Shown here piece after piece: positions 25,657-56,700 of a stretch of 64,000 nucleotides of DNA. The translations under genes were made by a program, and so were the position numbers. This DNA comes from Zygnema cylindricum. Taxonomy: Eukaryota; Streptophyta; Zygnematophyceae; Zygnematales; Zygnemataceae. The stretch lies in contig JBBHKE010001133.1 in the NCBI GenBank assembly GCA_037447655.1, positions 175,986 to 239,985 on the forward strand. The letters run 5' to 3'. Each line of letters starts with the position of its first letter. Positions within the stretch are counted from its first letter, which is position 1. Under the pieces are notes generated by a model. The model did not search any database. It saw only the letters and a program-made list of their open reading frames with translations, and was not told where the DNA came from.

Positions 25657-25969
25657 TGTTAAAAATTGATAAGTATGAAAGGACAAATTTCGTGATATCC
25701 TGTCAGAGAAAGGCCTGATTTCTGAATTGACTTTTTTTCGAGTCATGTATCTTTTTCAACATTGATTTGCGGCTTTGGAGTGTAACTGGAAGGTAGGGTC
25801 ATTCGTTGGCGGGTTTCAGCTGGGAAGCAAAGAGGCTCCAACTGGATAGAAACGTTATCGTGGGCCCTTTACTCATGTACACCTAAGAAGAGTGAAAAAT
25901 AAAAGGAGGCAAAAAAAAAATTGACTTGAAGTGTATCCGTAGAGATAATCTATGTGCAACTTATTTCTT

Positions 25970-26827
25970 ACCTATTTATAATCGATATGTACCTTCTTTT
26001 TACCCATCTATAGTCGGATATGTACCTTCTTTTCAACCATCTATAGTCGATATGTACCTTCTTTTCAACCATCTATAGTCGATATGTACCTTCTTTTCAA
26101 CCATCTATAGTCGATATGTACCTTCTTTTCAACCATCTATAGTCGGATATGTACCTTTTTTTTACCCATCTATAGTCGATATGTACCTTCTTTTCAACCA
26201 TCTATAGTCGGATATGTACCTTCTTTCAACCATCTATTCGGATGTACCTTCTTTTCACCATCTATAGTCGATATACCTTCTTTTCAACCATCTATAGTCG
26301 ATATGTACCTTCTTTTCAACCAATCTATAATTCGATATGTACCTTTTTTCAACCATCTATAGTCGATATGCCTTCTTATCAACCATCTATAGTCGGATAT
26401 GTACCTTCTTTTTACCCATCTATAGTCGATATGTACCTTCTTTCTACCCATCTATAATCGATATGTACCTTCTTTTCAACCATCTATAGTCGATATGTAC
26501 CTTCTTTCTACCCATCTATATTTGATATATAACTTCTTTTTACCCATCTATAGTCGATGTATAATTCTTTTTCCCTATCGATAATCTCTTATGTATCTTT
26601 TTTTACCTATCAATATGTACCTCCTTTCGATATGTAACTTCTATAGATATATACCTTCGATCGATGTGTACCTTCTGTCGATATGTATTTTTCACCTATC
26701 GATATGTACCTTTTACCATGTACTTTTTAGTTATCAATATGTACCTTTTACCTATCCGTATGTACCTTCCTTTTACATATCAATAATCGATATACAACTT
26801 TTTCGAACCTATCGATAATCTTTATGT
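25970..26827. repeat. 33-bp minisatellite, about 20 copies
   Basis: Copies of 'cgatatgtaccttcttttca' plus 'accatctatagt' run head to tail from about 25980 to 26570. They then become degenerate to 26827 as shorter 'cgatatgtacctt' units. The array is split by a MITE at 26829 and resumes at 27366-27530. It produces spurious Tyr/Ser/Phe-rich frames. Confidence 0.92.
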
Positions 26828-31207: not shown

Positions 31208-31595
31208 GAAAAAGAACACATTTTACAGTTAAGTTTGACTCTAAGTGAGTCACGATTAGAAGATATCTTAATTAATCTACGTAACGCGACATATTATTGG
31301 ACGATCACAATTACACGTGGCCAATTCATTAACCATGGAAGCGTCATGCCTGCAAAACAACGATAATACACAAATCGTCTGTCCCTTTGGTCTCTTTTGT
31401 AAGAGAATTCCGTACATTCAATAACCTGCATCATTTTTCAATAATTACAACTCTTTCATAAAAAATTTTGCGGACAACTTTTTCAAATCCCCGCTTCGTT
31501 TTGAGTTTTTAAAAAGGTGAGATTTCAAATTTATACATTTTTTTTAACACAATTTTGCAATTTTGCAGTTTGATTTCAGTTTCCAGTTGAATATT
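31208..31595. other. Intergenic AT-rich DNA
   Basis: No gene or repeat was recognised between the truncated MITE and the retrotransposon block. Confidence 0.5.
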
Positions 31596-32777
31596 TGTCG
31601 AGCGTGCCTGAGTAACGTGAGGGAAGGGCCCACAACCCGGAGTCGTCGGCATCGAAGTTCTGCAAATAACCCCCAAATGCGAATGCTTCCAAGAATGATG
31701 ATCATGCCCACTGCTGCCCACATCCCTCCTATAGATATGCATGCAAAATAGGGATGACGCTAGGACATGGAATAGGGATGAGTGCAGGGGAAGGCGAAAA
31801 TGATCCCCTACCCCTTCCTTCCCCCCCCTTTGGCCGGGGAAATGGATTTGGGTCTCGGTTATCGGGCTAATATCCCAATTTCACTTTGAATGAGGAGGAA
31901 CAAGCTGAACTTCAAGCTTTGCGGAAGCTTAAAAGAAAGCAAGTGGCTAAGAGCGGGTCAGAAACTAGCTACGGGAGCAGACAAGAGGGTGTTCCTTTAC
32001 AATTGCATGAATTGTCAACAACCAGGCCATGGGTGGAAGCACTGCAGCCGGAAACTGAAAGCGGAGCTAGCACTAAAGCTGAAGAAATGGGAAAAGGAAC
32101 GTGCAAAGAGGAACCGAAAGCAACACAAAAGGCTCAAAGGAGAAAGAGGGGGAGAGAAAACAACGGTAACTAAGGATACTTACTGTCCAACTCCCCGGAA
32201 CGAAACCTCCTAGATGTCCCAAGCTCGGTTGCGGCAAATCAAACATCAAAAGTTTGATGACGCTCAAATCTCCAACGAGATCCGGAGCAAATATACCACC
32301 GTGGGCCCCAAGTGTGAAGCTTGAGGTTTCCTAGACACAAGAAAGGGCAATGTTTCCGGAAGAATGGAGTTCCTAAAGAAATGATGCAATTTGCTTTGTT
32401 AACTGGAGAGGGGGAAGCGGCCGTTAACCCTCTCCCCCTTCAACTTCTTTACCATTGGTGACGCCAAGTTCTGTCCATGACAGAGAGACTTGAGTGGGCA
32501 TCAGCTGCTCCGGCAAAGATTATGCCGGAGATCATCATACAAGAACAAAGTCAGCAACTGGCCGCAATTATTGCAGAGTTAGCTGCCCTCCGCCTGGGGT
32601 CTTCTTCTCGGTCTGCTCCTGTAACAGCAGCACAACGACTCCAAAAGCACAAACAAGAGTTGTTACAAAAGCTCGCGGAGCTTGAGCTTCACGGCTCAGC
32701 GGGTGCCAATGATGACGACTTAATGGGTTAGGATTTAAAACCCCCAAATGCCCACCATGCACGAACTTTCCTGTCCG
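31596..32777. repeat. Gypsy LTR plus gag-like segment, direct repeat copy 1
   Basis: This unit and 34186-35367 are direct repeats offset by 2,590 bp. Bases 31596-31883 (TG...CA, 288 bp) are LTR-like. They match, inverted, the LTR at 42979-43223, which follows a polypurine tract, so the LTR here probably points to the minus strand. Bases 31884-32777 hold plus-strand gag pieces: a zinc knuckle CMNCQQPGHGWKHC (frame 31890-32213) and an Ala/Gln/Leu-rich frame (32477-32731). The first 100 bp differ from the other copy at more than ten sites; the remaining 1,084 bp show no difference I can see. Confidence 0.7.
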
Positions 32778-34185
32778 TGACCATGTGTAAAACATCCCCC
32801 GGATGGGGAGGGAGTGAAGTTCCATTCTTCCCTTTTTGTCAAAGGCACCTTTCATCTGGTCACAGCAAGGGCACGTCTGCACCATGCGGTTGGACCTGGG
32901 TCGGCAAACCATGCCACCAGTACGACCTTGTGACCTGTGAGGTGGTCGTTTATGTCTGAAGTGCCCGCATTGCTGGTGAAGACGAGCAATGAGGGTTTCC
33001 CAATCTGTCGGAAGAGGAACCACTTTCCTCGTCCCATAGGCCCATTTCCGGAGAAGAATGCCTCGATCCCATTCATACGTCGCCATTCATATCTAAACAC
33101 GAGACAAGTGAATTATGGCCAGGTTGGGAAGAGGGGTGCCTAACTGCATGGATTGAAGGGAATTGGTATCATTCCAAATATCCTTACAGCCGGCTCCAAT
33201 GGGAGCGTGCCCCTGGACATTCGCAGCAAAAGTTGACAGTTCTCATTCAGCACGAGGCAGCCAAATGAAGGAAGAGGAAGCCCGGATAAGTCCCATGCTA
33301 AGCTCCGGGTCTTCATCGTGCCTAAACCCGGTAGAGTCTCTAGTGGAAGGGTCTGGATTCTTGCTGAGTCCGTCTGCATTCCCATGAATCTCCCCTGCTC
33401 GGTGGATGATGTTGAAATTGTATTCCTGCAAGATGAGAACCCATCTGGCCAGCTTGCTGGTCAACTTACTGTTCTCCATTATCTATTTGAGGGGCTGGTG
33501 ATCTATAATAAGGGTGAAGTGTATTGCATAGAGGTAAGGCCTGAAATGCTGGATTGCCCATACTGAGGCGAGTAATTCCCCGTGATAATTGCTCTAATTC
33601 CCATTGGCTATAATATTGCTCCGGCTTGCGTATGCCACTACGTACTCCACCCTTGCATTGTCTAATTGAGCGAACACTGCTCCCAATCCAAACCTGCTTC
33701 AATCAGTATAAAGGAGGAAAGGTCGCTGGTGATCGGGCATCCGGAGCACAAGATGCTGTTTGAGGGAATCTTTCAAGAACTGAAAAGTGACCTGCTCTTC
33801 TTCTGCCCACTGTCACGCCTGGTAGTTTCGCAATAACTGATTCAATGGCTGGGCGTGGCTATTGAATTCGGGAATAAACCTCCGGTAATAGTTGGCCGGA
33901 CAGAGGAAAGTGCGAAGAGCCGAAATGTCCTGCGGGGGTGGAAGGGCGTCAAGGGCTGCCACCTTAACCATGTGGGGACCCACTGTCCCAAGAGTCACTT
34001 CATGACCAAGATAAATGATTTATCTGCACCCCAAAGATGCCCTTCCCCGTAGGGCACTTCAAGCCCGCCGCTTGGAGAGCCCAGGGAACGATCTTTTATG
34101 CTCCAAGTGTTCTTCGAATGTCTTAGAAAAAATAATCACATCGTCGATGTAACTGCGTGCGCAATCAATTCTTTGTAGGGCCTCG
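32778..34185 (-). mobile_element. Ty3/gypsy pol fragment, same family as the 34-43 kb element
   Basis: Read on the minus strand it contains the end of the RT palm ('SYIDDVIIFSKTFEEHLEH' near 34150), the thumb region ('VGPHMVKVAALDALPPP', 'NYYRRFIPEF'), RNase H remnants ('WVLILQEYNFNIIHRAGEIH' near 33400) and an integrase zinc-binding remnant near 32900-33000. Frames are broken by stops and shifts. It begins abruptly in mid-RT against the LTR-like repeat at 34186 and ends at the repeat at 32777, so it is a deleted or rearranged copy. It closely matches the plus-strand pol at 40.4-42.7 kb. Confidence 0.82.
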
Positions 34186-35367
34186 TGTCGAGCGTGCCTG
34201 TTTAACGTGAGGGAAGGTCCCACGGCCTGGAGTCGTCGGCATTGGAGTCTTGCAAATAAACCCGAAATGCGGATGCTTCCCAAAATGATGATCATGCCCA
34301 CTGCTGCCCACATCCCTCCTATAGATATGCATGCAAAATAGGGATGACGCTAGGACATGGAATAGGGATGAGTGCAGGGGAAGGCGAAAATGATCCCCTA
34401 CCCCTTCCTTCCCCCCCCTTTGGCCGGGGAAATGGATTTGGGTCTCGGTTATCGGGCTAATATCCCAATTTCACTTTGAATGAGGAGGAACAAGCTGAAC
34501 TTCAAGCTTTGCGGAAGCTTAAAAGAAAGCAAGTGGCTAAGAGCGGGTCAGAAACTAGCTACGGGAGCAGACAAGAGGGTGTTCCTTTACAATTGCATGA
34601 ATTGTCAACAACCAGGCCATGGGTGGAAGCACTGCAGCCGGAAACTGAAAGCGGAGCTAGCACTAAAGCTGAAGAAATGGGAAAAGGAACGTGCAAAGAG
34701 GAACCGAAAGCAACACAAAAGGCTCAAAGGAGAAAGAGGGGGAGAGAAAACAACGGTAACTAAGGATACTTACTGTCCAACTCCCCGGAACGAAACCTCC
34801 TAGATGTCCCAAGCTCGGTTGCGGCAAATCAAACATCAAAAGTTTGATGACGCTCAAATCTCCAACGAGATCCGGAGCAAATATACCACCGTGGGCCCCA
34901 AGTGTGAAGCTTGAGGTTTCCTAGACACAAGAAAGGGCAATGTTTCCGGAAGAATGGAGTTCCTAAAGAAATGATGCAATTTGCTTTGTTAACTGGAGAG
35001 GGGGAAGCGGCCGTTAACCCTCTCCCCCTTCAACTTCTTTACCATTGGTGACGCCAAGTTCTGTCCATGACAGAGAGACTTGAGTGGGCATCAGCTGCTC
35101 CGGCAAAGATTATGCCGGAGATCATCATACAAGAACAAAGTCAGCAACTGGCCGCAATTATTGCAGAGTTAGCTGCCCTCCGCCTGGGGTCTTCTTCTCG
35201 GTCTGCTCCTGTAACAGCAGCACAACGACTCCAAAAGCACAAACAAGAGTTGTTACAAAAGCTCGCGGAGCTTGAGCTTCACGGCTCAGCGGGTGCCAAT
35301 GATGACGACTTAATGGGTTAGGATTTAAAACCCCCAAATGCCCACCATGCACGAACTTTCCTGTCCG
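34186..35367. repeat. Gypsy LTR plus gag-like segment, direct repeat copy 2
   Basis: This is the second copy of the unit at 31596. Bases 34186-34473 are LTR-like. The plus-strand gag frames lie at 34480-34803 (zinc knuckle C-x2-C-x4-H-x4-C at residues about 38-51, then a Lys/Arg-rich stretch) and 35067-35321. From here plus-strand gypsy sequence continues rightwards to the protease. 'Accattggtgacgccaag' at 35041-35058 precedes the ATG at 35067 and could be a leader or primer-site remnant. Confidence 0.68.
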
Positions 35368-36624
35368 GAGCTTGGAATGTTGGGGTGGGAGACAGCCGTC
35401 GCCAACTCCGCAATTCCACCTCTATTCAAAGGCACCTCTATTCAAAGGCACGCCAAGCAGAAAATGGGTTAGAGGGACCACAACCAGAAAGCTACAGGTC
35501 CTTTGTCATTTACTCCCAAAGCAGTAATGCTCCATCGGGACATCGACCTCGGAATCAAACCCAATAATCCGCCATCTCTTCCTCCCAAACCTAAATTGCC
35601 TCTCGGTTTCAAAAATTACCAAAACGAGAAATAAGAGCGGGAGGAGGGGTCATTGGAATGGGTGAAAAAGGAGAATCAGGACTGGTTTGAGAGATACATG
35701 GCACAACGCCCGGAAAAGGACACTCCCCAAATACCTCTAGTCCTAGACTCCGGCTCCGAGAGTGAGAAACAAGGACAAGACCAGGATCTCCAGGAACCAA
35801 ATTCATCTCCATCTTCACCGACATGGACACATCCTTCCTCCAAACCAGTTGGCATGCTAGTCCGACACCTCATGCAAATGCCCTCACACACGTGAAGACT
35901 CTAGCATCCTCCCACAACTTGCCCAAATAAATCCTCATTCAGGCATTAGGAGAGGAGACCCACTCTTGAAATGGGAGGGTTGACAGGACCACTCCGCCAA
36001 CCGCAGTCTTTTTGTCCACTGATCCTAAAACCCCTATGACGGATAGGGACTACAAAGCCTTTTTAGTGGCCTTTATACTGAACAAAACCGGAAACTTCAA
36101 GCTGGGGATGGTACTGGGGATACCAGGATGTTGTGGTTGACTGGGCGCTCCTCAACCTCATCACCACCCCTGTTTTGCAAAAAATGCCCGAGGAACTCCA
36201 GCCCGAAATTTGCTTTAGCAACATCTGCTTAAGCACCGTAAGCAGCGGCAGTCAGCCAGTCTATGGGATTATCAGGGCCATGGAAATTGAGTTTTCTGAT
36301 GATGGAGGACAACGGGTGAAAATTGAGCTTCCCTTCTTAGTGGTGGAAGGGGTTCAATTCAAAATTCTGTTGGGAATGGCCACTTAAGCCCAGCTCAATA
36401 TGAGTTTGAGCGTGTGGAAATAACAATGTACAGTTTGGGACACCGGAAATCCGAACGAACCAAAGAAGTGGTTCTTTTGGATTTCTAGATTCGGGGGAAG
36501 ACCAATGTCTTGGTGTGTGGGTGCTACCCGGTGTTTACTACATCATCTACGACGGAACTGTTTGGGTGTTCCACAGATATTGACAAAGAAATTTAGCAAT
36601 TCCCAATTTCTAAGCGCTGGGAAG
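35368..36624 (+). pseudogene. Gypsy gag/protease region, degenerate
   Basis: An acidic segment (frame 35653-35895) is followed by a retropepsin-like region at about 36130-36400. 'VVDWALLNLIT' stands where an active-site DSGA would be expected, with the Asp codon at 36139-36141 and an apparent small deletion just after it. Downstream are 'QPVYGIIRAMEIEF', 'ELPFLVVEGVQFKILLGMA' and 'AQLNMSLSVWK', a typical C-terminal half of a Ty3/gypsy protease. Stops and shifts break the frame. It precedes the solo LTR at 36625 and belongs to the methyltransferase-bearing element. Confidence 0.7.
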
Positions 36625-37574
36625 TGTAATTGTGTGACCTCCATTGGTACACAGAATGTCAAGCTTATGTGAAGCCTCTAGGATAGTATATGCACTTTTG
36701 ACTTTGACAATGAATAAGTCACACCCTGAGACGCAAAATCTTTGACCGACTACACCCCTGTGTAGCTTGGACTCCCCTGAGTCCGCTGCAAAAAGAATCA
36801 CTCAATTTGCTCACTTGAGCATTAAGTTATGGCTGGCCAAAGATGGCCTATAAATACAGAGGCACTCTGGGAGAGAGGCTGAATCCAAGAAATATTCTAA
36901 GTCCTAAACTATCTCTCTAGGCCTACTACTAGTGTACCTATCCAATCAAATGACTGTAAGGTACAAGAAGGTACTGGTACCGCTGTACTTCTTGTACGGC
37001 CATAGTACGGCATGGCTGCTCCGCTGACGTGTATCAGTTCCTGAACCAAGGTTGCTCCCTCTGTGATACCCGTTGTCTAATCATCCTTTGCCACGTGTCA
37101 CCCGCCGACATATGCTCAGCAAACCGCCAAAAACCATTCCGGAATTTTGGCTCCTTCGCGAGCTGTCGATCGCGAACGACTTTCAATTTCGTCCGTCGAA
37201 ATTTGATGTCGTTTCGTGCGGTACTTTATTTCGTGCCGTCTCGCACGTTTCATGTTCTCTTTGTCCCGTAATATGTTTAAGTGAAGTATGCCGACGTGTT
37301 AAATTATAAATAAACATTGAACCCAGTATGTATATCGTTTCGGTAGGACCTAGTGGATAAGGTTAACGGCTGCGCCGTACGGCCAATTTCCGGAGATCAC
37401 CGGTTAAAGTCCTATTAGGGGCTGCCTAAGTTTTGCATGAATTTAAAGCTTCTGCTCTGTCTCCTTACCTGTATGAGACAGCCATGGCTGCCTGCAAGTC
37501 CTCAGTGACTACGACAAGTATGAGGGCTACTGGAAGACCATTAAGGACAAGACTATAAAATACCTTCTTCAACA
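36625..37574 (-). mobile_element. Solo copia-family LTR (a), minus orientation, with tRNA-like module
   Basis: The 950-bp element is TG...CA on both strands. Its minus-strand start is 'tgttgaagaaggtatttt' and its end is '-atggaggtcacacaattaca'. Flanks GGAAG (36620-36624) and AGAAG (37575-37579) look like a slightly decayed 5-bp target duplication. It is inserted between gypsy protease and methyltransferase. On the plus strand, antisense to the LTR, it carries 'ggataaggttaacgg' (37355-37369) and 'ggttaaagtcc' (37402-37412), which resemble tRNA A- and B-boxes. Confidence 0.82.
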
Positions 37575-37626
37575 AGAAGGGCAATATAAGAATAGATTAT
37601 TGCAGGTGGCGAAACTCTGACGGGGA

Positions 37627-38884
37627 GTGCATCATACATTTTCGGCTTTATTAATGAAGGAAGCAAATTTTACACCCATGTCTAAAGCTTCCAAATTCAA
37701 GTCCGGTAACATGGAGTTCGATCGACAAGTGATGTCATTGGCAATCCTCGATTTCGAAATCCGTATTTTATCTCTCTTTTCGGGAATTAGTTCCGATTTG
37801 GAAGCGGTCTTGAAAAAAGATATCTGGTGGAGTCATATGTAACCGTGGACATATCACCCGAGGCGCGGGCTGTCATCAAACACCACCTATACCAACTTCA
37901 CCATCTATACCCTCAACAGCTTCCAAAAATGATTGCCTTTTCCAACGCTCACCGGAGTCTTCCACAAAATGTCGAAAACATCATGGCACCCCATATAGCC
38001 AGTTTGGGAAGGGTGGATTTGATGTTGGCAAGCTGGCCTTGTTAGGGATACTCCCTAGCGGGTCAAGGAAAAGGGCATCAAAACAGCAGAAGTGGAACAT
38101 TTTACCGGATGATTGAAATAATCTCGTGGCTTCACCAGATCCAGGACACACCGGTGGGGCACGTTCTGGAAAATGTCTACCCGGAGACGATTAACAGAAA
38201 CAAGTTGTTGATTGTTGGAATCACGTAAGACGGATTTTAGGAGCTCCCTTGGTTTTCGACACATCACAGATGGGATCCAGGGCAGACAGAGTAAGGGCAT
38301 ATTGGACCAATATGATCTCGCTTACCGTCCTTCGGCAACTGATGGACAAACAAATACCCGATCCAGAGAATTCTGTACAGTAGATTCTTCGGGAAGGCAG
38401 GATGGCTACCCTTATGACGCGACCTGACCGCTCACCTTTCTTTCGGTGCAACAAACTGGGATTCCCACGGAAGGCACTCCTGACTTTGGTCTCTTTTCCT
38501 CACAGTCACGCTTATCGGAAAAGAGCAGCGCGCATGATTTTTGACAGTAAAGCGAGAATTTGGACAACACCGACGATTGCAAAATGGGAACTAGCCATGG
38601 GATTACATAAAGACACCACGGCATCACCTTTCTTTCAGTGCAACAAACAGGGATTCAAACGGAAGGCACTCCCGACTTTGGTCTCTTTTCCTCACAGTCA
38701 CACTTATCGAAAAAGAGCAGCGCGCATGATTTTTGACGGTAAAGCGAGAATCTGGACAACACCGATGATTGCACAATGGGAATTAGCCATGGGATTACAT
38801 AAAGACACCACGGCAGCACCAGGTATTTCAAACATCCATAGGTGTAGCCTTATAGTGCAAAGTATGGATTTGAATGCCATCACA
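37627..38884 (+). pseudogene. Retrotransposon-borne C5-cytosine DNA methyltransferase domain
   Basis: Successive frames show the C5-MTase motifs in order: motif I 'ILSLFSGISSDLEAVLKK' (about 37760-37815); motif II 'YVTVDISPEARAVIKHHL'; motifs III-IV 'GRVDLMLASWPC', stop, 'GYSLAGQGKG', with catalytic Cys at 38040-38042 and the PCQ glutamine now TAG at 38043-38045; motif VI 'VGHVLENVYPET' (ENV at 38169-38177); motif VIII 'GSRADRVRAYWTNM' (about 38273-38314); and the C-terminal motif 'MGLHKDTTAAPG...SMDLNAIT'. A 192-bp in-frame tandem duplication (38432-38623, 38624-38815) precedes the end. A frameshift near 37825 and other breaks make it inactive. Removing the two copia LTRs places it between protease and RT of the plus-strand gypsy element. 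It resembles de novo-type methyltransferases more than bacterial ones. Confidence 0.87.
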
Positions 38885-39103
38885 TGAGTGCTCAAGCATG
38901 CACTGGCCTTTTCTAGTCTCTAGTCCCCGGCATCAAAGGCTGTTTACCTTCAAGCTCCTCAGTTGTTAGCGCTGCAGGCAACTTTGCAGCTTGAGGGGGG
39001 AAGACAAAAGAGAAAAATTCACATTTCACCATTGCACATTTTCCCAGTGAGTGGGGGGGGGCGGCGGCTCAGATGGCGACAACTTAACGGAAGTTGTCAG
39101 CAG
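38885..39103 (+). other. Gypsy internal spacer between methyltransferase and LTR (b)
   Basis: The sequence continues the gypsy internal region after the methyltransferase, with a Leu/Gln/Ala-rich frame near 38950-39000 and a G-run at 39052-39060. No domain was recognised. Confidence 0.5.
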
Positions 39104-40321
39104 TGTTGGAATTCAAGTATTTTCTCGGTCTAGAGATTGCAAAATAAAAAGCAAAATAGTAGATATTGACAGCCTGCCTCTAACTCCTCACTCAAGTCCG
39201 CACACTTGTCGCAGTCACTAAAGACTGGAGGAGGAGTTAGCCATGGCTGCCTGTGCTGTCTAGAGAGAGACAGGCAGTTATTTTATAAGGATTTCTCTAA
39301 AAGGGAGTTTTGACAGAGCCAGGATTTGATCCAGGTACCTGGCATTCTTCACACCCGCAATCTGGCATTCTTCACACCCGCAATAGCCGGTAACCTTATC
39401 CAGATAGTCTAAATCATATGATAGAGTGTATGGGGTATGATATTAATTTAAACAGTTACAATAAGACTAATTTATTTAACTAGAACTAAATGCATACTGC
39501 ATAGAAACAGTTGTGTAAAGTACGACGTACGATACGGATACAAAATAAATACCGCGCACTTTGTTTGACGCCGGAAAGAATACCGCGCAGGTATTTATGA
39601 CGGCCACGATTGAAATCCAAATTTGATCGGACGGCCGCGAAGGATGCCGAGATCGCGGAGTACGATTTTGGCAGCTTGCAATCACCGCCACATTGAGTGA
39701 CACGTGGCAACACTACATTGGATTGCGGCAACTCCGGGGATTACGGAAACGAATCCGGATATGACACGTGTCAACATTTTGGCCATGTCGTACTATGGCC
39801 GTACATAAAAATACACCGGCACCTGTACTTTTCTGTACGACACAGTGTTTTAATTGGTGTCGTACTTCAGTAGATAGAGTTTTAGAGGGAGATAGGACTT
39901 AGAAAAATTTGGCAGATAGGACCCTCTCTCTATGAGAGCACCTTGTATAAATGGCTAACTTTGGGTAGCCATAACTATCAATTTACTTGACCATTTTCAG
40001 TGATTCTTTTTGCTGCAAACTCAAGGGAGTCCACTCTACACAGGGGTGTAATCGGTCAGAGTTTTTGTCTGCCAGGGTGGCTGCATTTCTAAGGGAAAGT
40101 CAAAGTGGGTGAATGTGTCCAAATCTCATATTCTAACTTTGCTTTCTGTGGTGCAACTGAGCACACAGAAAGTGTTATTTCACAGGGGTGAATCTATATT
40201 GGGGTTCTGACTGTCAAGGGGTCAGTCACTTGGGTTCATATTAACTTGAAGTCGGCACTATCTAGATTAGCTTCTTTTGGATCTGCATACTCTGAGGGCC
40301 AATGGAGGTCTCAGAGTTTCA
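39104..40321 (+). mobile_element. Solo copia-family LTR (b), plus orientation, with antisense tRNA-like module
   Basis: The 1,218-bp element runs from 'tgttggaattcaagtatttt' to 'atggaggtctcagagtttca' and matches LTR (d) at 50384-51563 along its length. No target duplication is visible (AGCAG left, TCGCG right). On the minus strand it carries a B-box-like GGATCAAATCC (plus 39322-39332) and an A-box-like GGATAAGGTTACCGG (plus 39387-39401), with a 23-bp tandem duplication between them. It splits the gypsy element between the methyltransferase and RT. Confidence 0.82.
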
Positions 40322-42978
40322 TCGCGTCCTAGCAGGAAGGGTAGAGGGAGATCCACAAGTAGGATTGGAATTCGACATTAACCTCTAGGGTAGACCGCCA
40401 AAGGCTTTGGCAGCTGTAGAGCCTGGGAAAATGGATTGGACTATAGGGGAGCAGTTCGATCTACAACAGAAGGCGCGGCTCTCCCAACTCTTTGCCATAA
40501 ACAATTCGGTGTTCTCATTGTTAGAAAAAAGATGTCGGTATTTACAAAGGAACACCCTTCCGAATCGACTTGATCGACAAGACGACTACTGTTTGGCAGA
40601 AGCAATATCCTCTCATCTTCATAGAGAAGGAATTTATCACGGCTAAAGTCTAGACTTTGGTGGAAGCCGATTTGGTTCAAGAAAGTACACGACTTCATGG
40701 GTTTGCTTTCGCGGCAGTTCTCCCTCCCAAGAAAGACTTGTTCGAGAAGACTGTAGATTTGCAAATGTGTGGAGACTATCGAATGTTGAACCGGGCCACC
40801 ATCTCGGACCGGTACCCTATTTCGACCTCGGAAGAGATATTCGACTCTCTTGCTGGCGCCACGATGTACTCCACTCTAGACATGAAGAACGGTTTCCACC
40901 AGATTGCCATGAAACTGAAGCACCGGGAGAGAACCGCACTTTGGGCAGGTTCCAGACTTTATGAAAGGATTTACATGCCAATCGGGCTCAAGAATGCATT
41001 GGCCAAATTTTAATGGGCAATGGACGAAGCGCTCCGAGGAATGTATTGTGCCCGGTGCTATATTGATGATGTTATTATATTCTCAAAGACCTTTGAGGAA
41101 CACCTAGAGTATGTCCAGATCGTTCTCCGTGCACTCCAAGCAGCTCGCTTGAAATGTCACCTGAGCAAAGGTATTTTTGGGGTGCAGAAAATCATTTACC
41201 TCGGACATGAGGTTACTTCCGCGACTGTGGGTCCCCACATGGTCAAGGTGGCTGCCCTAGACGCTCTTCCCCCAACGAAGGACAACTAGGCCCTTCGCAT
41301 CTTTCTAGGCCTGGCAAACTACTATCGGCGGTTTATCCCCGAGTTTAGTAGTTAGGCCCTGCCACTTAACCAGCTATTGCGAAAGGACCAAGAGTGACAG
41401 TGGGCCAAAGAACAACAGGTCTCCTTCCAGTTCTAGAAGGATGCTCTGAAGCAGCACCCCGTGCTCCGGATGCCTGATCACCAGAGGCCTTTCCTTAATT
41501 ATACTCATTGGAGCAGGTTTGGATTTGGAGCGGTTTTGGCTCAAGTCGATGATGTCGGAGCTCAATATGTGGTGGCCTACGCTAACCGGAGCAACAACAG
41601 GGCAGAGGGGAATTATAACAGTTACCACGGAAAGTTACTCGCAGCGGTTCGGGCCATCTAGCATTTCCGACCTTATTTGTACGGAGTCCATTTCAAGCTT
41701 ATTACGGATCTCCAACCTCTGAAATCGATTATGGAAAATAGTAAGTTAACCGGCAAACTCGCCAGATGGGTTCTTATCCTGCAGGAATATGATTTCGACA
41801 TTTTTCATAGGGCGGGGGAAATCCATGGGAATGCCAACGGACTTAGCCAGAATCTTAATCCCTCCACCTTGGATTCTACCTGGGTCATTCAACCTTTTGG
41901 GACCTCTTTTGACCAGCTGGCGGGGGAACCGCTTCGTGTTGGTCATGATAGAACATTTTTCTAAGTGGATCGAGTTTGTGGTTTTGCTCGGAAGGAGTCC
42001 AAAGCAATTGCAGACGCTTTTTTGCAGAGGGTTTTAGCCCAATTCGGTGCTCCTGCGGAAGTTCTAACCGACCATGGCTCCGAGTTGCCGGAGAAATTTC
42101 CAACCTCTTGGAAAAATGTCAGGTTGACCATTGGCTGACTAGCCGTGTTCACCCGCAAGCCGACGACTTGGCCGACATGTGCGTACAGACAGTGAAGCGG
42201 TCACTACGAAAATATGCAGTTGAAGAAGATTTGGGGGAGTGGGACAAAAGGGTGCCTTAGATTGCTATGGGCTACAAATTCAGTATACAGGCTACTCTCC
42301 ACTCCTACAACCCTTATTTCATTCTATTTGGACGACATCCCATCTTGCCCAGGGATGCATCAGCCCTAGCGGTGGTCCTCTCGGAGATGGATGATAAGGG
42401 GACAGTCGAAAAACTGATCGTCAACAGAGCCAAGATATTCTATCGAGAGATGCCTCTGGCCATGGGAAATTTGCAGGCGGCTCAACACCAAGATTAGTTG
42501 TGGTATTCTCAACCCCGAAGCGGGAATTATATGCCCCGACAGCGACGATTTATGCCGGGGGACTTTGTATATTGGATGCAACAGAAGAAGGACACGCAGG
42601 ATATTTTTGCCGGAAGAGTAATTTTGAAAGTGGTCGAAGTTTCCAACAAAAGGGTTCTTACATTGGAGGGAAAGGATGGTCAAAGAATTAAAGAAAATTA
42701 GATCAATGTGGCCCCTTGCCATCTTCGAGGATTGGAGAACGAACCGACTTTCCACTTAACTTACTTTGCCGACCCTCCTTCTTGTTCATCAACTTGCAAT
42801 TAGTCCTCCCAGCTGCCCGACATATTGGTTTGCAATCAGTGTTGTCAGTGTTGGCATTCAGCCTGTCTACCCCACTCTTGGGAGCCACAACCTCTACCCT
42901 CCACCACCTGGTTCTATGGGAACTCCGAATGAAGCGGGTAATTATTTTTATATCTTAGTCCCGGTTGACTAAAAGGGG
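40322..42978 (+). pseudogene. Gypsy pol: RT, RNase H, integrase (degenerate)
   Basis: Ordered domains on the plus strand: RT start ('LQMCGDYRMLNRATISDRYP' near 40760), palm ('YSTLDMKNGFHQI', 'YIDDVIIFSKTF' with YIDD at 41059-41070), thumb ('GHEVTSATVGPHMVK', 'FLGLANYYRRFIPEF'), RNase H ('FGAVLAQVDDVGAQYVVAYA', 'LITDLQPLKSIM'), and integrase core fragments ('SKWIEFVVL', 'AQFGAPAEVLTDHGSELPE'). Stops near 41012, 41288, 41354, 41435 and 41660 mostly replace expected Gln codons. A purine tract 'ctaaaagggg' at 42969-42978 directly precedes the LTR. The RT start connects in sense to the protease/methyltransferase segment left of LTR (b). Confidence 0.88.
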
Positions 42979-43223
42979 TGGAAATTAGGATATCAGCCCG
43001 ATTACCGAGACCCAAATCCCTTTCCTCGGTTAGGGGGGGGGGAATAAGGGGGAGGGGATCACTTTCGCCTTCCCTTGCACTCATCCCTATTCGTTGTCCG
43101 AGCGTCTTCCCTATTTTGCAAGCATATCTATATGAGGGATGTGGGCAACTGTAGGCATGATCATCATTCTGGGAAGCATTTGCATTTGGGGGTTATTTGC
43201 AGGACTCCGATGTCGACGACTCC
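42979..43223 (+). repeat. Gypsy 3' LTR (partial)
   Basis: It begins 'tggaaattaggatatcagcc' right after the polypurine tract. It matches in inverted orientation the LTR-like segments at 31596-31883 and 34186-34473, including 'tgcatttgggggttatttgc' and 'gtcgacgactcc'. The end is cut by the copia LTR fragment at 43224. Confidence 0.75.
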
Positions 43224-43740
43224 ATTAGACCACAGAATACAAAAAGCCTCTAGATAGTATTTAGCTAACCCACTTCAAGCCACAACCACTGCTGTCCAAA
43301 ATGGCAAACTCACAGTTTGAATGCACCCTTGTGTAGCCTGGACTCCTTAGATTCCGGAGCAAAAAGAATCACTGAAAACGGCCAACTAGCCTATAAGTTA
43401 TGAGGTAGTAAAAATGCCAATTTGTACAAACTCTCAAAGGGAGAGGTGACTACCTACCAAAATTTTCTAAGTCTTGATTCCCTCTAATAACTTCTATCTA
43501 CCAAAGTACGGACCAATCAGGTTATTGTATCGTACCAAAAAGTACTACTGCCAGTGTACTTTTTTTACGCCATATGTAGGACAAGGCTATTAAGCTGACA
43601 CGTGTCCGCTTTTCACTCGTCTGTACGTTCCTCGGAATTCCCATGACCGAATGTCATCTCTCCACATGGCTCCAGGTCATGCCACGTCATAAAACGCCAA
43701 AGTGACCTTTCCGGAATCTCGGCGAAGATGTAGAAACTAA
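43224..43740 (-). repeat. Copia-family LTR fragment (c), minus orientation
   Basis: On the minus strand it reads through the 3' two thirds of the same LTR family ('gtgattctttttgctccgga', 'agtccaggctacaca', 'gtgggttagctaaatact'). It is truncated at 43740, where the copia element starts in the opposite orientation. The pair thus forms a head-to-head inverted repeat. Confidence 0.75.
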
Positions 43741-50383: not shown

Positions 50384-51563
50384 TGTTGATATTTTTGTAT
50401 TTTCTAGGTCTGTAATAGGATAGAAAAAGGTAGAGGCAGTCTGCCTCTAACTCCCGTCTCCAAGCCCCCACACTTGTTGTAGTCACTAAAGGTTGGATAT
50501 GGAGCTAGAGCCATGACTGCCTAAGCTCTCTAGAGAAGACAGGGGGTAAATTAGTAAGACTTACCAAAAGGTACTTGACGGACCCAGGAATTGATCCTGG
50601 TACCTACCGTCCGTCAAATCTGCCGTTAGCCGGTGACTTTATCCATTTAGACTAGAGTTAGTATTACGACGTATGGGGTTTGATAATTATTTAAATAGTT
50701 ACACGTAGACTAGTTCATTTAACTAGAAATGTATACGTATTGCATGGATACAGTTATCGATAGTACGGAGTACAGATTTATTTATTGAAACGGCTACCGC
50801 GCATTTGGTTCGACTGCGAAACAAATACCTCGCGTCTATTTTCAACGGCTAGAAATGTAGCCGGATTTGATCGGACGGCCACGATAAACGCAGCGATCGC
50901 GGGATATGTACTTTTGGCGGTTTGCGGTCATCGCCACATAGGATGACACATGGCACGTCAACATTGGATTGCGCGACACTGGAGATTACGGTAACAAATA
51001 GATATATGACATGTGTTGAAATTTCAGCCATATCGTACGATTGTCGTGCAGAAAGTACACCGGCACCAGTACTTATCTGTACGGTACAGTAAAGTGATTG
51101 GTGCCGTAAGTCAGTAGATAGGGTCTTAGAGTGAGAATAGGACTTATAATATTTTGAGTAGGTAGTCGCCTCTCCCAGAGAGCATCTTTAAATGGGCTAA
51201 CTTTGGGTAGCCATAACTATCAATTTACTCGACCATTTTCATTGATTCTTTTTGCTGCAGACTCAGAGGAGTCCAGGCTACACAGTGGTGTAGTCGGTCA
51301 GAGTTTTTGTCTGCCAGGGTGGCGGTATTTCTAAGGGAAAGTCAAAGTGGGTGAATGTGTCCAAATCTCATATTCTAACTTTGCATTCTGTGGTGGAACT
51401 GAGCACACAGAAAGTGTTATTTCACAGGGGTGAATCTATATTGGGGTTTTGACTGTCAAGGGGTTAGTCATTTGGGTTTATATCAACTTGGAGTCGGCAC
51501 TATCTAGATTAGCTTCTTTTGGATCTGCATACTCCGAGGGCCAATGGAGGTCTCAGAGTTTCA
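50384..51563 (+). mobile_element. Solo copia-family LTR (d) with 5-bp target duplication GTACC
   Basis: The 1,180-bp element runs from 'tgttgatatttttgtatttt' to 'atggaggtctcagagtttca'. GTACC at 50379-50383 is repeated exactly at 51564-51568, which fixes the ends of this LTR family. The minus strand carries GGATCAATTCC (plus 50587-50597) inside a perfect 5-bp stem (CCAGG/CCTGG), and GGATAAAGTCACCGG (plus 50630-50644). Confidence 0.92.
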
Positions 51564-51669: not shown

Positions 51670-53760
51670 CTATCTTTTATTCTTTTTTCTGGGCAAGGTG
51701 ATATTGTTAAATCTCGAAAGCCAATCATATTTATTTATATATATATGTGCGTGGTAGTGCATTTGTGTCTTCGTCTGGAGTTCTCTTTTGCTTTGGGAGT
51801 GACCGTTGCGGAGTAAACTGTAACCCCCTGGATCGGAACAGTGGGTTTTGGTTGCTACTGGTGCTGCCAGGTCACCCTCCGCTTGTATTACTGCAGCATC
51901 AAAGGCGGGATCCAAAAAATTGATGCTTGGGGCCATCAAAAGTGGTGGACGCTCCTTGTAATCCGACAACGCCCCTCCACAAAGGTAGTTGACCATCATG
52001 GGGAAGAGAGTTGTCTCGAAGTCATCCACAATGGCTCCTCCCTTGTATTTGTTGATTTCGGATTGTGTGAAAGACTTCCACAAAAACTCGATATCCGAAA
52101 ATGCGATCCCCAAGCTATCTTTTGTAAAGATCCAGACATCCCTCATTTCCTTTTCTTCCTCTGCAGAATTGGTAAAATGGGAAGAGGGAGGCTCGGTGGG
52201 GCTGACAAAGTAAGCCGGTGAGATGACTCTTACATCGTCTTCCTCAAGACCAGAGTCGTGTCCTCCTCATGTAAAAGGTGCTTCCCTGATAGGTGTGGAA
52301 CCCCCTCCCACAGAGGAAGTACCAGCGGGTGAACATATCGTGGGAGGAAGGATATTCCCCACTACTCCTCTATATCCATAATAGTATTGTTCTTCCCGGA
52401 GGACATGATCCATCGATGGGATGTGGAGCCTTGGTCCCGCTGAACGTTACCTACTCAAGGAAACTGCAACTGCCAGAGTATCTCGTAAGTATCCTCGCGG
52501 TACTCCTTAAGTTTCTCGTAAGTATCCTCGCGGTACTCCTTAAATTCCTGCCGCAGGGTGTCGAGTTGATATTCTAGTTGCTCACATCAAGTCTCCAGCA
52601 GCGCGATATGGTGGTCTGCCGCTACCAAACGCCTCCGCCTGATTCGCTCTCGAACTTAGTCCTCCCCTTCCTCCGGTTCTGTAGCTGCTACCTCAGGTGG
52701 TGGCGGAATGGTCGTCAGTGCCGGTGCTTCGAGTGTAGGAACTTAGGGAACTTCGGTTTCCTCGGCTTGCTCTTCTTCTTCCACCACTTCCTCTACTGGT
52801 TCCCACCGAGGAACCTTCCTTAATTTAAAGGAAATATGTTTTCTAGCCGCTCGGGCCCGCTGCAAAGCGTTCTTCCGGGCCAACTTGACTGCCCCTCGTG
52901 TGTGACCTCCGCCCGAGAGATGATGTCTTGCAGGCGGACATCCCACGGGTGATACTGGCGGAGTAACCCGAGAACATCTACCCTGTACCGGTAGTGATCT
53001 TCGACCACCTCCACAAATCGCAGGGCATGGGGGTTTAGCGGCACATAACCCTTGTGTTTGTTCCCCATGTCTTTTGTCCTCATAAAATTCCAAGCCGGGT
53101 GTGACGATACGACGGCGAGGATATTGATAGGGTCCCTGGGCTTTCCGGTACGCCACTCTCTGGGCCACTCCGAAGGGTCACAATAAAAGCACTTCGAGAA
53201 GCTGAAGGTGAGATTCGGATGCCGGGCGTCGCTAGGGAGTGGAAAGAGATAGCCGGGAATTTCTTCCCCCTTTTCACTCTCTTCGCCCGCGTCCTCATGA
53301 CCCCCTCGAAGGAGAAACACGTCATCCCCGCTGGGGTACTGTGCATCTGCCTTCTTTTTCTCACTTTGAGAAGAGTGCTCATCTGCGGTACTCTCCTTAT
53401 TGGGGTCCCACATCACCTCTAAATCAGAGGAGCGCTCCTCAAATGGCGGAGGTGTTAGTTCGCTCTCCTGCTCCTCAGCATCCGAGAGTTCATGGTCTTC
53501 CTCATCCTCTTGATCCCTTTCCTTTAGTTGGTTGTATTCGGGGTCCTGTGAATTTTTTGACCCCTCCCCACCACTGGTCTATACGGGCCCTGCCTCGCTT
53601 CTAGTTGTTTCCTCCAGTTCCAGCTCCCCTTCTACCTTTCTCCTCTGATCTGCCTCTTACCATGGCCTCCGCCGCCACTAACAATCTATCAAGACGGGGC
53701 ACATCCCCTTGCCCCACCCGTACTAGTCTCCTCCTTTTGGTGGTGGGGAGGACGATGACG
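51670..53760 (-). pseudogene. Unclassified acidic protein remnant, possibly retroelement gag
   Basis: Two neighbouring minus-strand coding stretches show protein-like composition and higher GC than their surroundings. The upstream part (about 53610-52745) begins acidic ('QEDEEDHELSDAEEQESE'), passes 'FYCDPSEWPREWRTGKPRD' and 'NPHALRFVEVVEDHYRYRV', then after a shift near 52950 'VKLARKNALQRARAARKHI' and a Glu-rich end. The downstream part (about 52250-51840) has 'EEDDVRVISPAYFVSPTEPP', 'FETTLFPMMVNYLCGGALS' and 'LMAPSINFLDPAFDAAVIQ'. A few stops break them. I recognise no domain. It lies just beyond the 3' end of the chromovirus pol on the same strand, so it may be gag or an extra ORF of another element. 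Confidence 0.45.
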
Positions 53761-53791
53761 TAATAGATACTATCGTGTAGGACAATTCAGG

Positions 53792-56700
53792 TCATTCGAG
53801 AAGTGAAGGTAAGCTGGCTGTGCAGAGTGAAACACTCTCCAAACTGCTTGGATTGGGTTGATCGAGAGAGCGGGTGGCGGCTTTATCAGAGAGGGTTGAG
53901 GGTTTCACAATTGGAGTCTTCCATGCGTTGCAGCGTGCGAGAGAATCGCAGCGTCCAACATTTAGTAACCTGCGCTGCTGCGACGACACCGAGGGTTTGT
54001 CGTCACCAATGTGGGAAAACAAAACTGCGCCGTTGTGCTTTTCTGTCAGCAGAGCGATAGCGCTGCGATTCTTTGATGGGACAGCGATAACGCTGCGCTT
54101 TGGTGGTTGCGCAACCACAGAACTGCGGTCCGGCAACATCACCGCTGCGTTTCTTCGCCGCGTCCCTACTATGATTGCGATGGTTGCGACACTGCGATTT
54201 GCTCCTTTATCTCGTCCGCTGCGATTGCCCCTCCGGTTAAGCCGATTGTCCTCACTCTGCTGAAACCGGCGTAACAACTCAGGTGAGTGCAGATCTTCCT
54301 CGTCCACCCAAGAGTCGTCCTCAACTCTATAGCCCTTCCAACGCACCAAGTATTGGCTAGAGTTAGAAATCCGAGAGCTACGCGACTAAAGGATCTCTTC
54401 AACGTCATACTCGTCCGATGTACCCCGAATAGGAGGTAAAGGGGTATTCGACCTTCGATTGGTAAAAATCGAATCGGGGTCGCGAAACGGTTTGAGAAGG
54501 GAAACATGAAAGACATTGTGGATATGCCAGTCCTTTGGTATATCGAACTTATAAGCCACCTCTCCCACCCGTGAAAGAACAGTGAACGGCCGCGTGAATT
54601 TCGGTGCCAATTTCTTAGACCGGGCACCCAGTGATGATAAGTTTGCCATACTAAGGAGGACCATATCACCCACGCTAAAAGCGGTGTCCTTCCGGTGACA
54701 GTCCGTTTGAGACTTTTGCCTATCCTTTGCAAGTTGGAGCACCTTCGCCCCTCTTTCCAGATTTTCTTGCAGCATTTTGGCAAAATCGAGGGCTGCGAGT
54801 AGAGGGCAGTCGGCTACCAACAAATTTTGGAGAAGGGTGGGTTGTCGTCCATTGAGGAAGAATGGCATAGCGTTCGTGGACGAGTGCACCGAACTGTTGT
54901 ACGCTACTTCGATTGCCGTTAAGTGGTTCACCAAATCTGTTTGGTGTACCGGTACGTACGCCCGCAAAGCCTCATCCAAAGTCTGATTCACCCGTTCGAT
55001 CTAACCATCAGTTTTAGGGTGGTAAGCGGTGGACACGGCCAACTGCGTGCCACACAGCTCAAACATATTTCTCCAAAAGTGACTCACGAACTTCCGATCG
55101 CGGTTGCTAACGATTCTTTTGGGAAGTCGGTGATGACGGAATATCTCGCGAAAGAATAATTCCGCCACATCTCGCCCTGTTGCAGTGGTTGTTGTGGGTA
55201 GAAAATGCGCCATTTTTGTTAGATAATCCACGACGACAAAGATAGAGTCATAGCCTTCCCGAGTCAACAAAAGAGCCACGATGAAATCCATCGAAATTGC
55301 CTCCCTAGGAACCGTCGGTATCGAAAGGGGTTGTTACAGACCTTTTTGCCCTGATTCAGATTTATTCCTATTACAAGAGTCACACGTCTGTACATAATCC
55401 GCACTGTCTCGAGTCATGTTTGTCCAATAATACGCCTCAGCGACACATGTCATTGTTTTATCCCGCCTAAAATGTCCGCTGAGTGTCTTGTCATGACTCA
55501 GTTTATGTATTACATGACGTAATTCCTAGTTTGCTGGAACGTAAACTCTTGTTGTCTTACTTGGTCAGTACCGCCACATACCATTGGCGGTTCAAATAAA
55601 TACCTTACGTTTATTGAGTTCCTTGATTGTCTCGTCTTCGTCGTAAGCTGCATTGATTCTACTCAACCACTACTCGTCCATTAGTACCGTACTGGTGACT
55701 ACGCTGAGTTTCGGATCTTCCACTGCAGCTGTCGCTGCGGTGTTCTTTTTCGAAGAGCTTACGCTTTCATCCTATGATGTTTGCGATCGTTGATCTGTCA
55801 CTGGCGCTGCTACTCCTGGTCTCCTCGACATTGCATCTGTCGGGTTTGTCTTGCTCGGCTTGTACTCAAAAACAAGTTCCGGTCCGAAGGTCTAAAGAAA
55901 CGTCATCCATTGGACAACTTCGGCTATATCTGTAGATACTGTAGAGCGTGGTGATCGGTGATGACTGTGATCCGCTTCCCTTGGACGTAACATTTCCAAA
56001 CTTCCTGCGCATTAATGATTGCAATTGTCTCTTTTTTGTGAGTGGCCCAGTTAAGCTCTACTGCCTTTAGTTTTCGACTGTCGTAGGCAATGGGTTATAG
56101 GCCATTTCCCTGATCGTGCACAATGATCGCTCCAATGGTTGTATCGTTGGTGTCTTTGATTATCGTCCAAGGTAAGTCCGGGTCGGGAATAACTAACACA
56201 GGGGCGGTAACCAACCGCTCCTTTAGCGTTTTAAAGGTTGCCTCTTGCGCTGATTTCCATTCGTTGGGCACGTCGTTCTTGAGTAATTCTGTAAGTGGTG
56301 CAGCGGTTTTTTCAAACCCTTCAACAAAACGCCAATAGTAGGAGCATAATCTAAGGAAGCTCCGTAATTCCGTAATGTTGGCCGGCTGCGGCCACTCCTT
56401 CACTGTCCTAGCTTAGTTCGGATCCACTGTGATGCCATCCCGACTCACCACATGGCCCAGATAATCATCTTTCTCCTTCATGAAGTCACATTTACTTCTT
56501 TTCGCGTACAACGTGTTCTCCCGAAGGACTTGTAGGACCGTTTGCAAGTGTGTCATATGATCCTCCAGCGTTCGGCTATACACCAAGATGTCGTCTAGAA
56601 AGACGATTACAAACGCGTTCAAATATTGCCGAAAGATGGAATTCATCTAATGCATAAACGTTGACGGTGTATTAGTAAACCCGAACGGCATAACTCGAAA

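What the first reader, a model, noticed from the sequence alone, without database searches (positions are those of the whole stretch)
34186..43223. Gypsy retrotransposon carrying a C5 DNA methyltransferase between protease and RT
Motifs I, II, III-IV (PCQ), VI (ENV), VIII and the C-terminal 'TTAAPG...SMDLNAI' block of a C5-cytosine methyltransferase lie in order at 37.63-38.88 kb. Protease-like sequence is on the left and RT/RNase H/integrase on the right, all on the plus strand. The two interruptions are later solo LTRs of another family. Retrotransposon-encoded methyltransferases have been reported in dinoflagellates and charophyte algae, so the class is not wholly new, but it is rare. This copy points to an element that could methylate its own DNA. 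The copy is dead: frameshift near 37825 and PCQ changed to PC-stop.
Basis: partly seen in the sequence, partly recalled or inferred. Interest (0 to 1): 0.93.

Follow-up and report, generated by a model that had tools for sequence, protein, structure and literature searches.

The report
Retrotransposon family carrying DNA methyltransferase
The window holds a dead, rearranged copy of a jumping gene that carries its own DNA-methylating enzyme; the same genome holds more than a hundred relatives, at least one of them whole and very young, so it is a living example of a rare kind of element first described in a green alga and in dinoflagellates.

Summary
Confirmed. A DNMT3-type C5-methyltransferase (MT) lies between protease and RT in a broken Ty3/Gypsy copy. 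It belongs to the family. The window's assembly (352.8 Mb) holds at least 123 loci with this MT; lists were capped. All 20 fetched loci (mostly picked for open frames) have PR-MT in order, and 18 of 20 have RT downstream. One has MT-RT-RNaseH-INT-PHD in a single 2395-codon frame between identical 931-bp repeats. MT dN/dS is 0.12-0.36 in 8 usable pairs. MT and RT identities correlate (Mantel r 0.86). Six of 11 extended copies show split repeats A-coding-B-A-B, as reported for KnitGypsy-Dnmt3 of Klebsormidium nitens, the closest known kind. Relatives occur in Marchantia and unnamed public contigs, some with a second domain order; I saw no report of these in the papers searched. Self-methylation of cDNA is the likeliest function but is inferred. 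Kinship with K. nitens sequences was not tested.

The parts
34186..43223 (+).
31596..32777 (+). Second copy of the left part (inverted 3' end plus gag zinc-knuckle region), 98.7% identical to 34186-35367
32777..34186 (-). Inverted pol fragment (mid RT to integrase H2C2) nearest to another subfamily, 83-85% to L015/L016/L025/L026/L029 (75% to L032)
34186..34472 (-). Inverted copy of the element's 3' end, 87% to 43224-42981 over 245 bp; matches L032 9396-9109
34594..34635 (+). Gag zinc knuckle (CCHC, by eye), degenerate gag downstream to about 35330
   Evidence: sequence; weak match to P0002 nearby, E 0.006; DNA alignment to L032
36012..36384 (+). Aspartic protease remnant
   Evidence: P0002 588-710; no Pfam match of the open piece; PR model match upstream of MT in 20 of 20 own-genome loci
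36625..37574 (.). Later insertion 1 (TG..CA ends, flanks GGAAG/AGAAG); absent from L032
37747..38887 (+). DNMT3-type C5-methyltransferase domain, two frame changes and three stops against P0001
38432..38815 (+). 192-bp tandem duplication (94%) inside the MT C-terminal part, 38432-38623 and 38624-38815; single copy at this point in L032
39104..40321 (.). Later insertion 2, repeat family also at 50437-51563; absent from L032
40392..41880 (+). Reverse transcriptase and RNase H
41885..42600 (+). Integrase core and C-terminal part; about 540 bp with the H2C2 zinc domain deleted relative to L032 and P0001
42783..42920 (+). Degenerate PHD finger (Cys/His pattern, by eye)
   Evidence: PHD in relatives
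42955..42984 (+). Hairpin TTAGTC/GACTAA directly before a polypurine tract
42981..43223 (+). 3' end stretch of the internal region; the 3' repeats A2 and B2 are missing, another repeat begins at 43220

Best explanation
The window carries a dead copy of a living Ty3/Gypsy family in which a DNMT3-type cytosine-5 methyltransferase is a standing part of the polyprotein: gag (zinc knuckle)-PR-MT-RT-RNaseH-INT-PHD, within split direct repeats A-coding-B-A-B that end TGTC..GACA and (4 of 6 copies exactly) make 4-bp target duplications. Shown: anatomy, co-inheritance of MT with RT, conserved catalytic residues, purifying selection, young insertions. Inferred: MT is made with Gag-Pol, is packaged, and methylates the element's cDNA de novo before or at integration, so a new copy enters the genome already marked; the PHD finger at the integrase end binds histone H3 and steers the integration complex to suitable chromatin. 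The use to the element would be passing as host DNA or lying quietly where damage is low.
For: Anatomy. DNMT3 class: a profile of six family MTs scores DNMT3A/B/C chains up to 89 bits, against 41 for the next PDB entry (4onj, labelled DNA methyltransferase), 39 HaeIII and HhaI, 36 and lower for tRNA C38/DNMT2 enzymes, 30 DRM2; an own-genome MT from an unbroken frame gives DNMT3A E 1e-10 and HaeIII/HhaI 0.004. Catalysis kept: motif IV Cys in 39 of 40 relatives (the other a gap), motif VI Glu in 40 of 40, motif VIII Arg in 40 and 39 of 40. Selection: MT dN/dS 0.12-0.36, median 0.20, in the 8 of 55 pairs (11 open MTs, pairs not independent) with 0.02<dS<1; RT 0.02-0.28 (7 pairs); INT 0.08-0.74 (6 pairs). 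Co-inheritance: Mantel r 0.857, p 1e-4, 16 proteins; MT and RT trees agree on the window's neighbours and on type B. Youth: A repeats 931 bp 100%, 1388 bp 99.64%, 1475 bp 99.5%. Number: 123 of 123 scored matches to the family MT at E 1.2e-84 or better, of 1757 first-look candidates. CG activity of related retrotransposon MTs in yeast is reported for SymbioDIRS-Dnmt3 (PMC5890265 section 10).
Against: No methylation data for this genome. The KnitGypsy-Dnmt3 MT showed no activity in yeast, called inconclusive by its authors. Motif IV has Glu instead of Pro in 10 of 40 relatives, which may weaken catalysis there. Five of 11 extended copies showed no paired A repeats. Two young copies, L018 and L019, have their coding region split over several frames. 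P0007 sits with the window's group in the MT tree but outside in the RT tree and in the MT tree; it is a long branch. PHD ligand unknown; PHD model match in 12 of 20 own-genome loci and in 13 of 18 relatives with an INT match. The structure could not be predicted.
Confidence: 0.6

Rival explanations
1. The methyltransferase was a chance capture in one copy: a host gene, gene fragment or other insertion that has nothing to do with the element's life.
For: In the window alone the domain sits between two insertions and is broken.
Against: At least 123 family MT loci in the genome, a near-constant distance to RT where both are listed (68 of 137), one open frame through MT-RT-INT-PHD, purifying selection, the same order in relatives and agreeing MT and RT trees.
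Confidence: 0.02
2. The MT acts mainly on host chromatin: with the PHD finger reading histone H3 it marks the integration site or rival elements, a write-and-read pair like the DNMT3 catalytic domain with its ADD reader, rather than the cDNA.
For: PHD passes the Pfam cut-off in an own-genome copy with an unbroken frame (38.1 bits) and in P0006, P0007 and P0015; my PHD model matches in 13 of 18 relatives with an INT match and in 12 of 20 own-genome loci. MT is DNMT3-like.
Against: PHD is fused to INT, not to MT; polyprotein cleavage probably separates them; no binding or methylation data; no PHD match in P0001, P0028, P0037 and P0039 (P0031 is cut in INT).
Confidence: 0.2
3. The MT modifies RNA, or has a non-catalytic part in the particle (nucleic-acid binding), and DNA methylation is incidental.
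For: In the L002 relative gag-PR-MT ends at an in-frame TAG before RT, so MT might be made in the amount of Gag, as a structural protein would; the KnitGypsy MT was inactive in yeast.
Against: Catalytic residues are almost invariant; nearest solved kin are DNMT3 DNA enzymes, well above DNMT2.
Confidence: 0.13
4. Independent capture: the window's clade and KnitGypsy-Dnmt3 took DNMT3 separately and share only the architecture by convergence.
Against: Same class of MT, same Gypsy composition and the same unusual repeat layout; the search reaches only proteins of 0.55-1.75 times the query length that share exact 5-residue words.
Confidence: 0.2

Closest known systems
KnitGypsy-Dnmt3 of Klebsormidium nitens (de Mendoza et al. 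2018, PMC5890265; part 1 of 7, sections 9-11 and passages read; figures and supplements not seen)
   Same: Intronless DNMT3-type MT inside the Pol frame of an LTR Gypsy element; conserved key residues; purifying selection; repeats laid out as in DIRS (A-coding-B-A-B)
   Different: Another host (assembly 352.8 Mb) with at least 123 MT loci; PHD finger at the integrase end (the word PHD is absent from that paper's main text); relatives with a second domain order and in Marchantia; sequence kinship untested
SymbioDIRS-Dnmt3 of Symbiodinium (same paper)
   Same: DNMT3-type MT in Pol of a retrotransposon with split repeats; de novo CG activity shown there
   Different: Tyrosine recombinase and DIRS backbone, against a DDE integrase and Gypsy backbone here
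Chromoviruses (Gypsy with chromodomain at the integrase C-terminus)
   Same: Gypsy backbone with a chromatin reader after INT
   Different: PHD finger instead of a chromodomain; DNMT3 domain; the window's own chromovirus-like element at 53-58.7 kb (class by eye) gave RT and INT matches but no MT match to P0001-P0007

Membership tests
KnitGypsy-Dnmt3 kind | Gypsy domain composition with DDE integrase | tested here: met
   Window: RVT_1 and RT_RNaseH, integrase core by tblastn; own-genome copy L013: RVT_1, RNase H, H2C2, rve above cut-off
KnitGypsy-Dnmt3 kind | DNMT3-type MT | tested here: met
   DNMT3 chains best in PDB by sequence for window read-through, family profile and own-genome copy; no tree with plant host DNMT3 was possible
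KnitGypsy-Dnmt3 kind | MT in the Pol frame, no introns | tested here: met
   One frame PR-MT-RT-RNaseH-INT-PHD in L013; MT and RT in one frame also in L014, L015, L016, L017, L019, L020, L022, L023; the window copy is broken
KnitGypsy-Dnmt3 kind | DIRS-like repeats A-coding-B-A-B | tested here: met
   11 copies were extended: 5 of 10 and L032 have paired A repeats, and all 6 also have B before and after A2 (in L032 only 53 bp of B). 5 of 11 have no such pair. The window copy itself lacks A1, A2 and B2
KnitGypsy-Dnmt3 kind | Conserved catalytic residues and purifying selection on MT | tested here: met
KnitGypsy-Dnmt3 kind | Common descent with the K. nitens elements | not tested
SymbioDIRS-Dnmt3 | Tyrosine recombinase | tested here: not met
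   rve DDE integrase instead; no tyrosine recombinase match in P0001-P0007 or L013
Chromovirus | Chromodomain after integrase | tested here: not met
   PHD finger there; no chromodomain match in P0001-P0007, in five further relatives or in L013

The most novel reading that the evidence does not exclude
An old, widespread clade of Gypsy elements in streptophytes (this host, Marchantia, Klebsormidium and unnamed hosts) carries both a writer (DNMT3) and a chromatin reader (PHD). It replicates by a non-canonical route in which the integrated ends lie inside the LTR (A-coding-PPT-B-A-B, no TGG-type primer site directly after A1, a hairpin abutting the polypurine tract), and it has kept the MT for long enough that the MT moved to a second place in Pol in one branch. 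It would be a self-methylating element lineage with its own way of closing its ends.
Probability: 0.35. Interest if true: 0.82.

Novelty: new member of a known kind. Interest (0 to 1): 0.63.

Why it matters
Methylation is the host's tool to silence transposons, so an element that keeps its own de novo methyltransferase under purifying selection is a paradox. The 2018 paper left the role of such enzymes open. This genome has many copies in at least two lineages, with at least one whole copy between identical repeats and others with near-identical repeats, so the question can be asked directly by reading methylation on young against old copies and on element cDNA. [quoted passage not shown] It also brings the question to a model plant with genetics.

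Tried and rejected
Chance or host-gene capture: rejected. Inverted terminal repeats as the family's true ends (my reading): rejected; copies with paired ends have direct A and B repeats, and the window's left piece is an inverted 3' end. Decay by deamination: stops facing Gln, Arg or Trp of P0001 were 3 of 3 in MT, 2 of 7 in RT-RNaseH, 2 of 4 in INT-PHD and 5 of 9 in the inverted fragment, against 12-17% of residues, but only 1 of 3 in MT against P0002; too few. Fold of the inverted left piece: no excess stability (z 0.80). Viral and bacterial scans gave one contig each: L001, an IMG/VR contig with a phage-like methylase (by eye), and L002, a retrotransposon in a contig labelled as a cyanobacterial MAG (the script stopped half-way and was redone). 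Host species: not identified. Structure prediction did not complete.
Full report
What is in the window. Between 34186 and 43223 lies a decayed Ty3/Gypsy copy. Relatives found by sequence align to it in order: protease at 36012-36381, methyltransferase (MT) at 37747-38629 plus a second copy of its C-terminal part up to 39043, RT-RNaseH at 40531-41880, integrase core onward at 41885-42920. The MT read with X at breaks passes the Pfam DNA_methylase cut-off (26.8 bits, E 4.3e-6), and its best solved relatives are DNMT3C, 3A and 3B (E 4e-4 to 1e-2). Open pieces taken singly match no methyltransferase, so the copy is far gone; there are two frame changes and three stops in MT against P0001.

The left end is not the element's 5' end. 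34186-34472 holds an inverted copy (87%) of 42981-43224, and in L032, the nearest kin among the 20 loci fetched, the matching stretch is the end of the internal region just before the 3' repeat. The gag zinc knuckle follows at 34594 (by eye), but no gag capsid was found with seven query stretches from six relatives (gag diverges fast, so this alone is weak), and bases 1-2452 of L032, upstream of the gag part that aligns, have no match in window 31501-43300. The whole left part is present twice, at 31596-32777 and 34186-35367, 98.7% identical, with an inverted pol fragment of another subfamily between (83-85% to L015, L016, L025, L026 and L029). The integrase H2C2 domain is deleted (about 540 bp against L032). 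A 192-bp tandem duplication lies in MT. A degenerate PHD finger follows the integrase (by eye).

The insertions. The alignments to L032 are 16 and 19 bp apart where the window has 971 and 1237 bp, so both interruptions are later insertions. Insert 1 has TG..CA ends and near-identical 5-bp flanks; insert 2 resembles 50437-51563 but has no exact duplication at the stated ends. I did not remove them to search the joined element, as the finding suggested; pieces were searched apart.

The family in this genome. The assembly has 352,776,454 bases in 2689 contigs. A Pfam search scored 123 of 782 first-look candidates, and a search with the P0001 MT scored 123 of 1757, all at E 1.2e-84 or better and 43-58% identity. 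The window's own copy is in neither list, so the lists are far from complete. The union is 203 distinct loci, but some Pfam matches may be host methyltransferase genes; 123 is the safe lower bound. I fetched 20 loci, picked mostly for long open frames and so not a random sample. All 20 have PR then MT on one strand; 18 of 20 have RT after MT (not L030 and L031); 12 of 20 show PHD. L013 has one frame of 2395 codons with zinc knuckle (below cut-off), MT, RT, RNase H, H2C2, rve and PHD by Pfam and PR by my model. Of 137 scored RT matches (of 3702 candidates), 68 have a listed MT 50-2500 bp upstream, median gap 439 bp, and none downstream; the other 69 are undecided because the MT lists are capped. 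Two of these could still be fetched; both hold MT sequence, one only its C-terminal part.

Ends of the element. For ten loci I fetched the neighbouring stretches. Paired A repeats were found in five (L013, L017, L018, L019, L020); the other five had none, also at a laxer threshold, apart from a 233-bp, 72% match in the flanks of L015. L032, extended later, has them too. All six also carry B once before and once after A2: A-coding-B-A-B. A repeats are identical in L013 (931 bp), 99.64% in L018 (1388 bp), 99.5% in L019 (1475 bp), 96.3% in L020, 96.7% in L032 and 80% over the longest match in L017; B is 186-243 bp at 96-100% in five, and 53 bp at 92% in L032. The outer ends read TGTC..GACA, and the B1-A2 junction has two extra bases (GC). 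Read by eye, four of six have identical 4-bp flanks (TTGG, AAGG, CCCT, CCCC) and two match in three of four. In the five lineage-2 copies a polypurine run reaches the start of B1; in L032 its runs lie 243 and 171 bp before the 53-bp B. So in lineage 2 the classical LTR would be B-A, yet the integrated ends lie at the B/A border. No TGG primer-site start lies within the first 40 bases after A1 in six of six. This layout is what the Figure 4 legend of PMC5890265 calls the structure of a DIRS retrotransposon with Gypsy domains.

A hairpin beside the polypurine tract. An exact-stem search finds a hairpin directly abutting a G run in 14 of 20 loci, once each, against 1 match in 20 base-shuffled loci; the shuffles hold few G runs, so the control is lenient. 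Stems differ between lineages (CCAGCTCCT, CCTCTTAGTC, CTTCTTAGG), which argues for a kept structure. The window copy has TTAGTC/GACTAA at 42955-42972 before AAGGGGTGGAAA.

Selection and co-inheritance. Among open MT, RT and INT frames of the own-genome loci, pairs with 0.02<dS<1.0 gave dN/dS medians of 0.20 (8 of 55 pairs of 11 MTs), 0.12 (7 pairs of 12 RTs) and 0.17 (6 pairs of 11 INTs); two INT pairs with very low dS reach 0.59 and 0.74. Across 16 relatives with MT, RT and RNase H, MT and RT identities correlate (Mantel r 0.857, p 1e-4); the catalytic Cys is present in 39 of 40 relatives and the motif VI Glu in 40 of 40. The MT tree puts the window with L032 (100/98) inside own-genome lineage 1 (100/100); P0001 and P0003 are next (94/87, not starred). 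Lineage 2 groups with P0004 and P0015 (92/99). The RT tree, from one open 119-residue piece of the window, puts it with P0003, P0001 and P0002 (100/98). P0007, a long branch, is placed differently between trees; warnings on long branches were printed.

Wider distribution. Of three protein searches one found none and two gave P0001-P0039. Nine of the 39 are named Marchantia polymorpha. Nine have MT after RNase H (type B; P0023 ends there) and three partial ones have MT directly before INT. These 12 form one clade in the MT tree (100/100), and the nine with RT form one in the RT tree (100/99). In L002, gag-PR-MT and RT-INT-PHD are in one frame separated by a TAG followed by CAATCA, which resembles the leaky-stop context of tobacco mosaic virus (recalled, no call).

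How it probably works. From the anatomy: transcript, Gag-Pol translation, cleavage by PR, packaging of MT with RT, methylation of cDNA, integration by a DDE enzyme with a PHD reader. Only anatomy, selection and youth are shown; the rest is inference. The 2018 paper proposed self-methylation of cDNA, showed CG activity for SymbioDIRS MTs and none for the K. nitens MT, called inconclusive.

Novelty. The kind is known. New, as far as the held papers that I saw show: this host with over a hundred copies, PHD, type B order, Marchantia members, hairpin. Searches for earlier reports: (listings). Passages were read in PMC12344493, PMC6338049, PMC9516144 and PMC10952607, and part 1 of 7, sections 9-11 and passages of PMC5890265. 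PMC12344493 names LTR Copia and DIRS for the streptophyte and dinoflagellate cases, where the 2018 paper says Gypsy. Subscription papers, supplements and figures were not seen, so earlier notice elsewhere is possible.

Noticed in passing
window 42955-42984 and 14 of 20 own-genome loci (L013 9301-9342 and equivalents): Hairpin directly abutting the polypurine tract, with stems that differ between lineages but stay paired.
   Followed up: partly
L002 3489-3497: Gag-PR-MT and RT-INT-PHD frames are separated by one in-frame TAG followed by CAATCA, a TMV-like leaky-stop context (context recalled); MT might be made at Gag level.
   Followed up: partly
P0005, P0021, P0022, P0023, P0026, P0027, P0029, P0030, P0039 (and partial P0006, P0032, P0035): Second domain order with MT after RNase H; one clade in MT and RT trees.
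   Followed up: yes
P0004, P0015 and others, motif IV: 10 of 40 relatives have Glu in place of Pro before the catalytic Cys (WECQ in P0004 and P0015).
   Followed up: no
L002, contig CADCWO010000201.1: A retrotransposon of this kind sits in a genome bin labelled as a cyanobacterium (Synechococcales MAG), probably contamination.
   Followed up: partly
G000:C961:71695-72543: An RT match of this family lies in an open frame of 5743 codons.
   Followed up: no
window 31596-34186: Left element part duplicated at 98.7% around an inverted pol fragment of another subfamily; how it arose is unexplained.
   Followed up: partly
window 53000-58700 (minus): A second Gypsy element, chromovirus-like, without an MT match, and a Copia-like element at about 44-47 kb (class by eye).
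   Followed up: no
window 25945-26616: Tandem array with about 32-bp period, beside an Lsm-like reading frame (by eye) and a tRNA-Gly gene; a second tRNA-Gly lies at 29.5 kb.
   Followed up: no
window 15545-16120: Reading frame that looks like the first exon of a chloroplast-targeted thylakoid lumen protein, which points to a green-lineage host (by eye).
   Followed up: no
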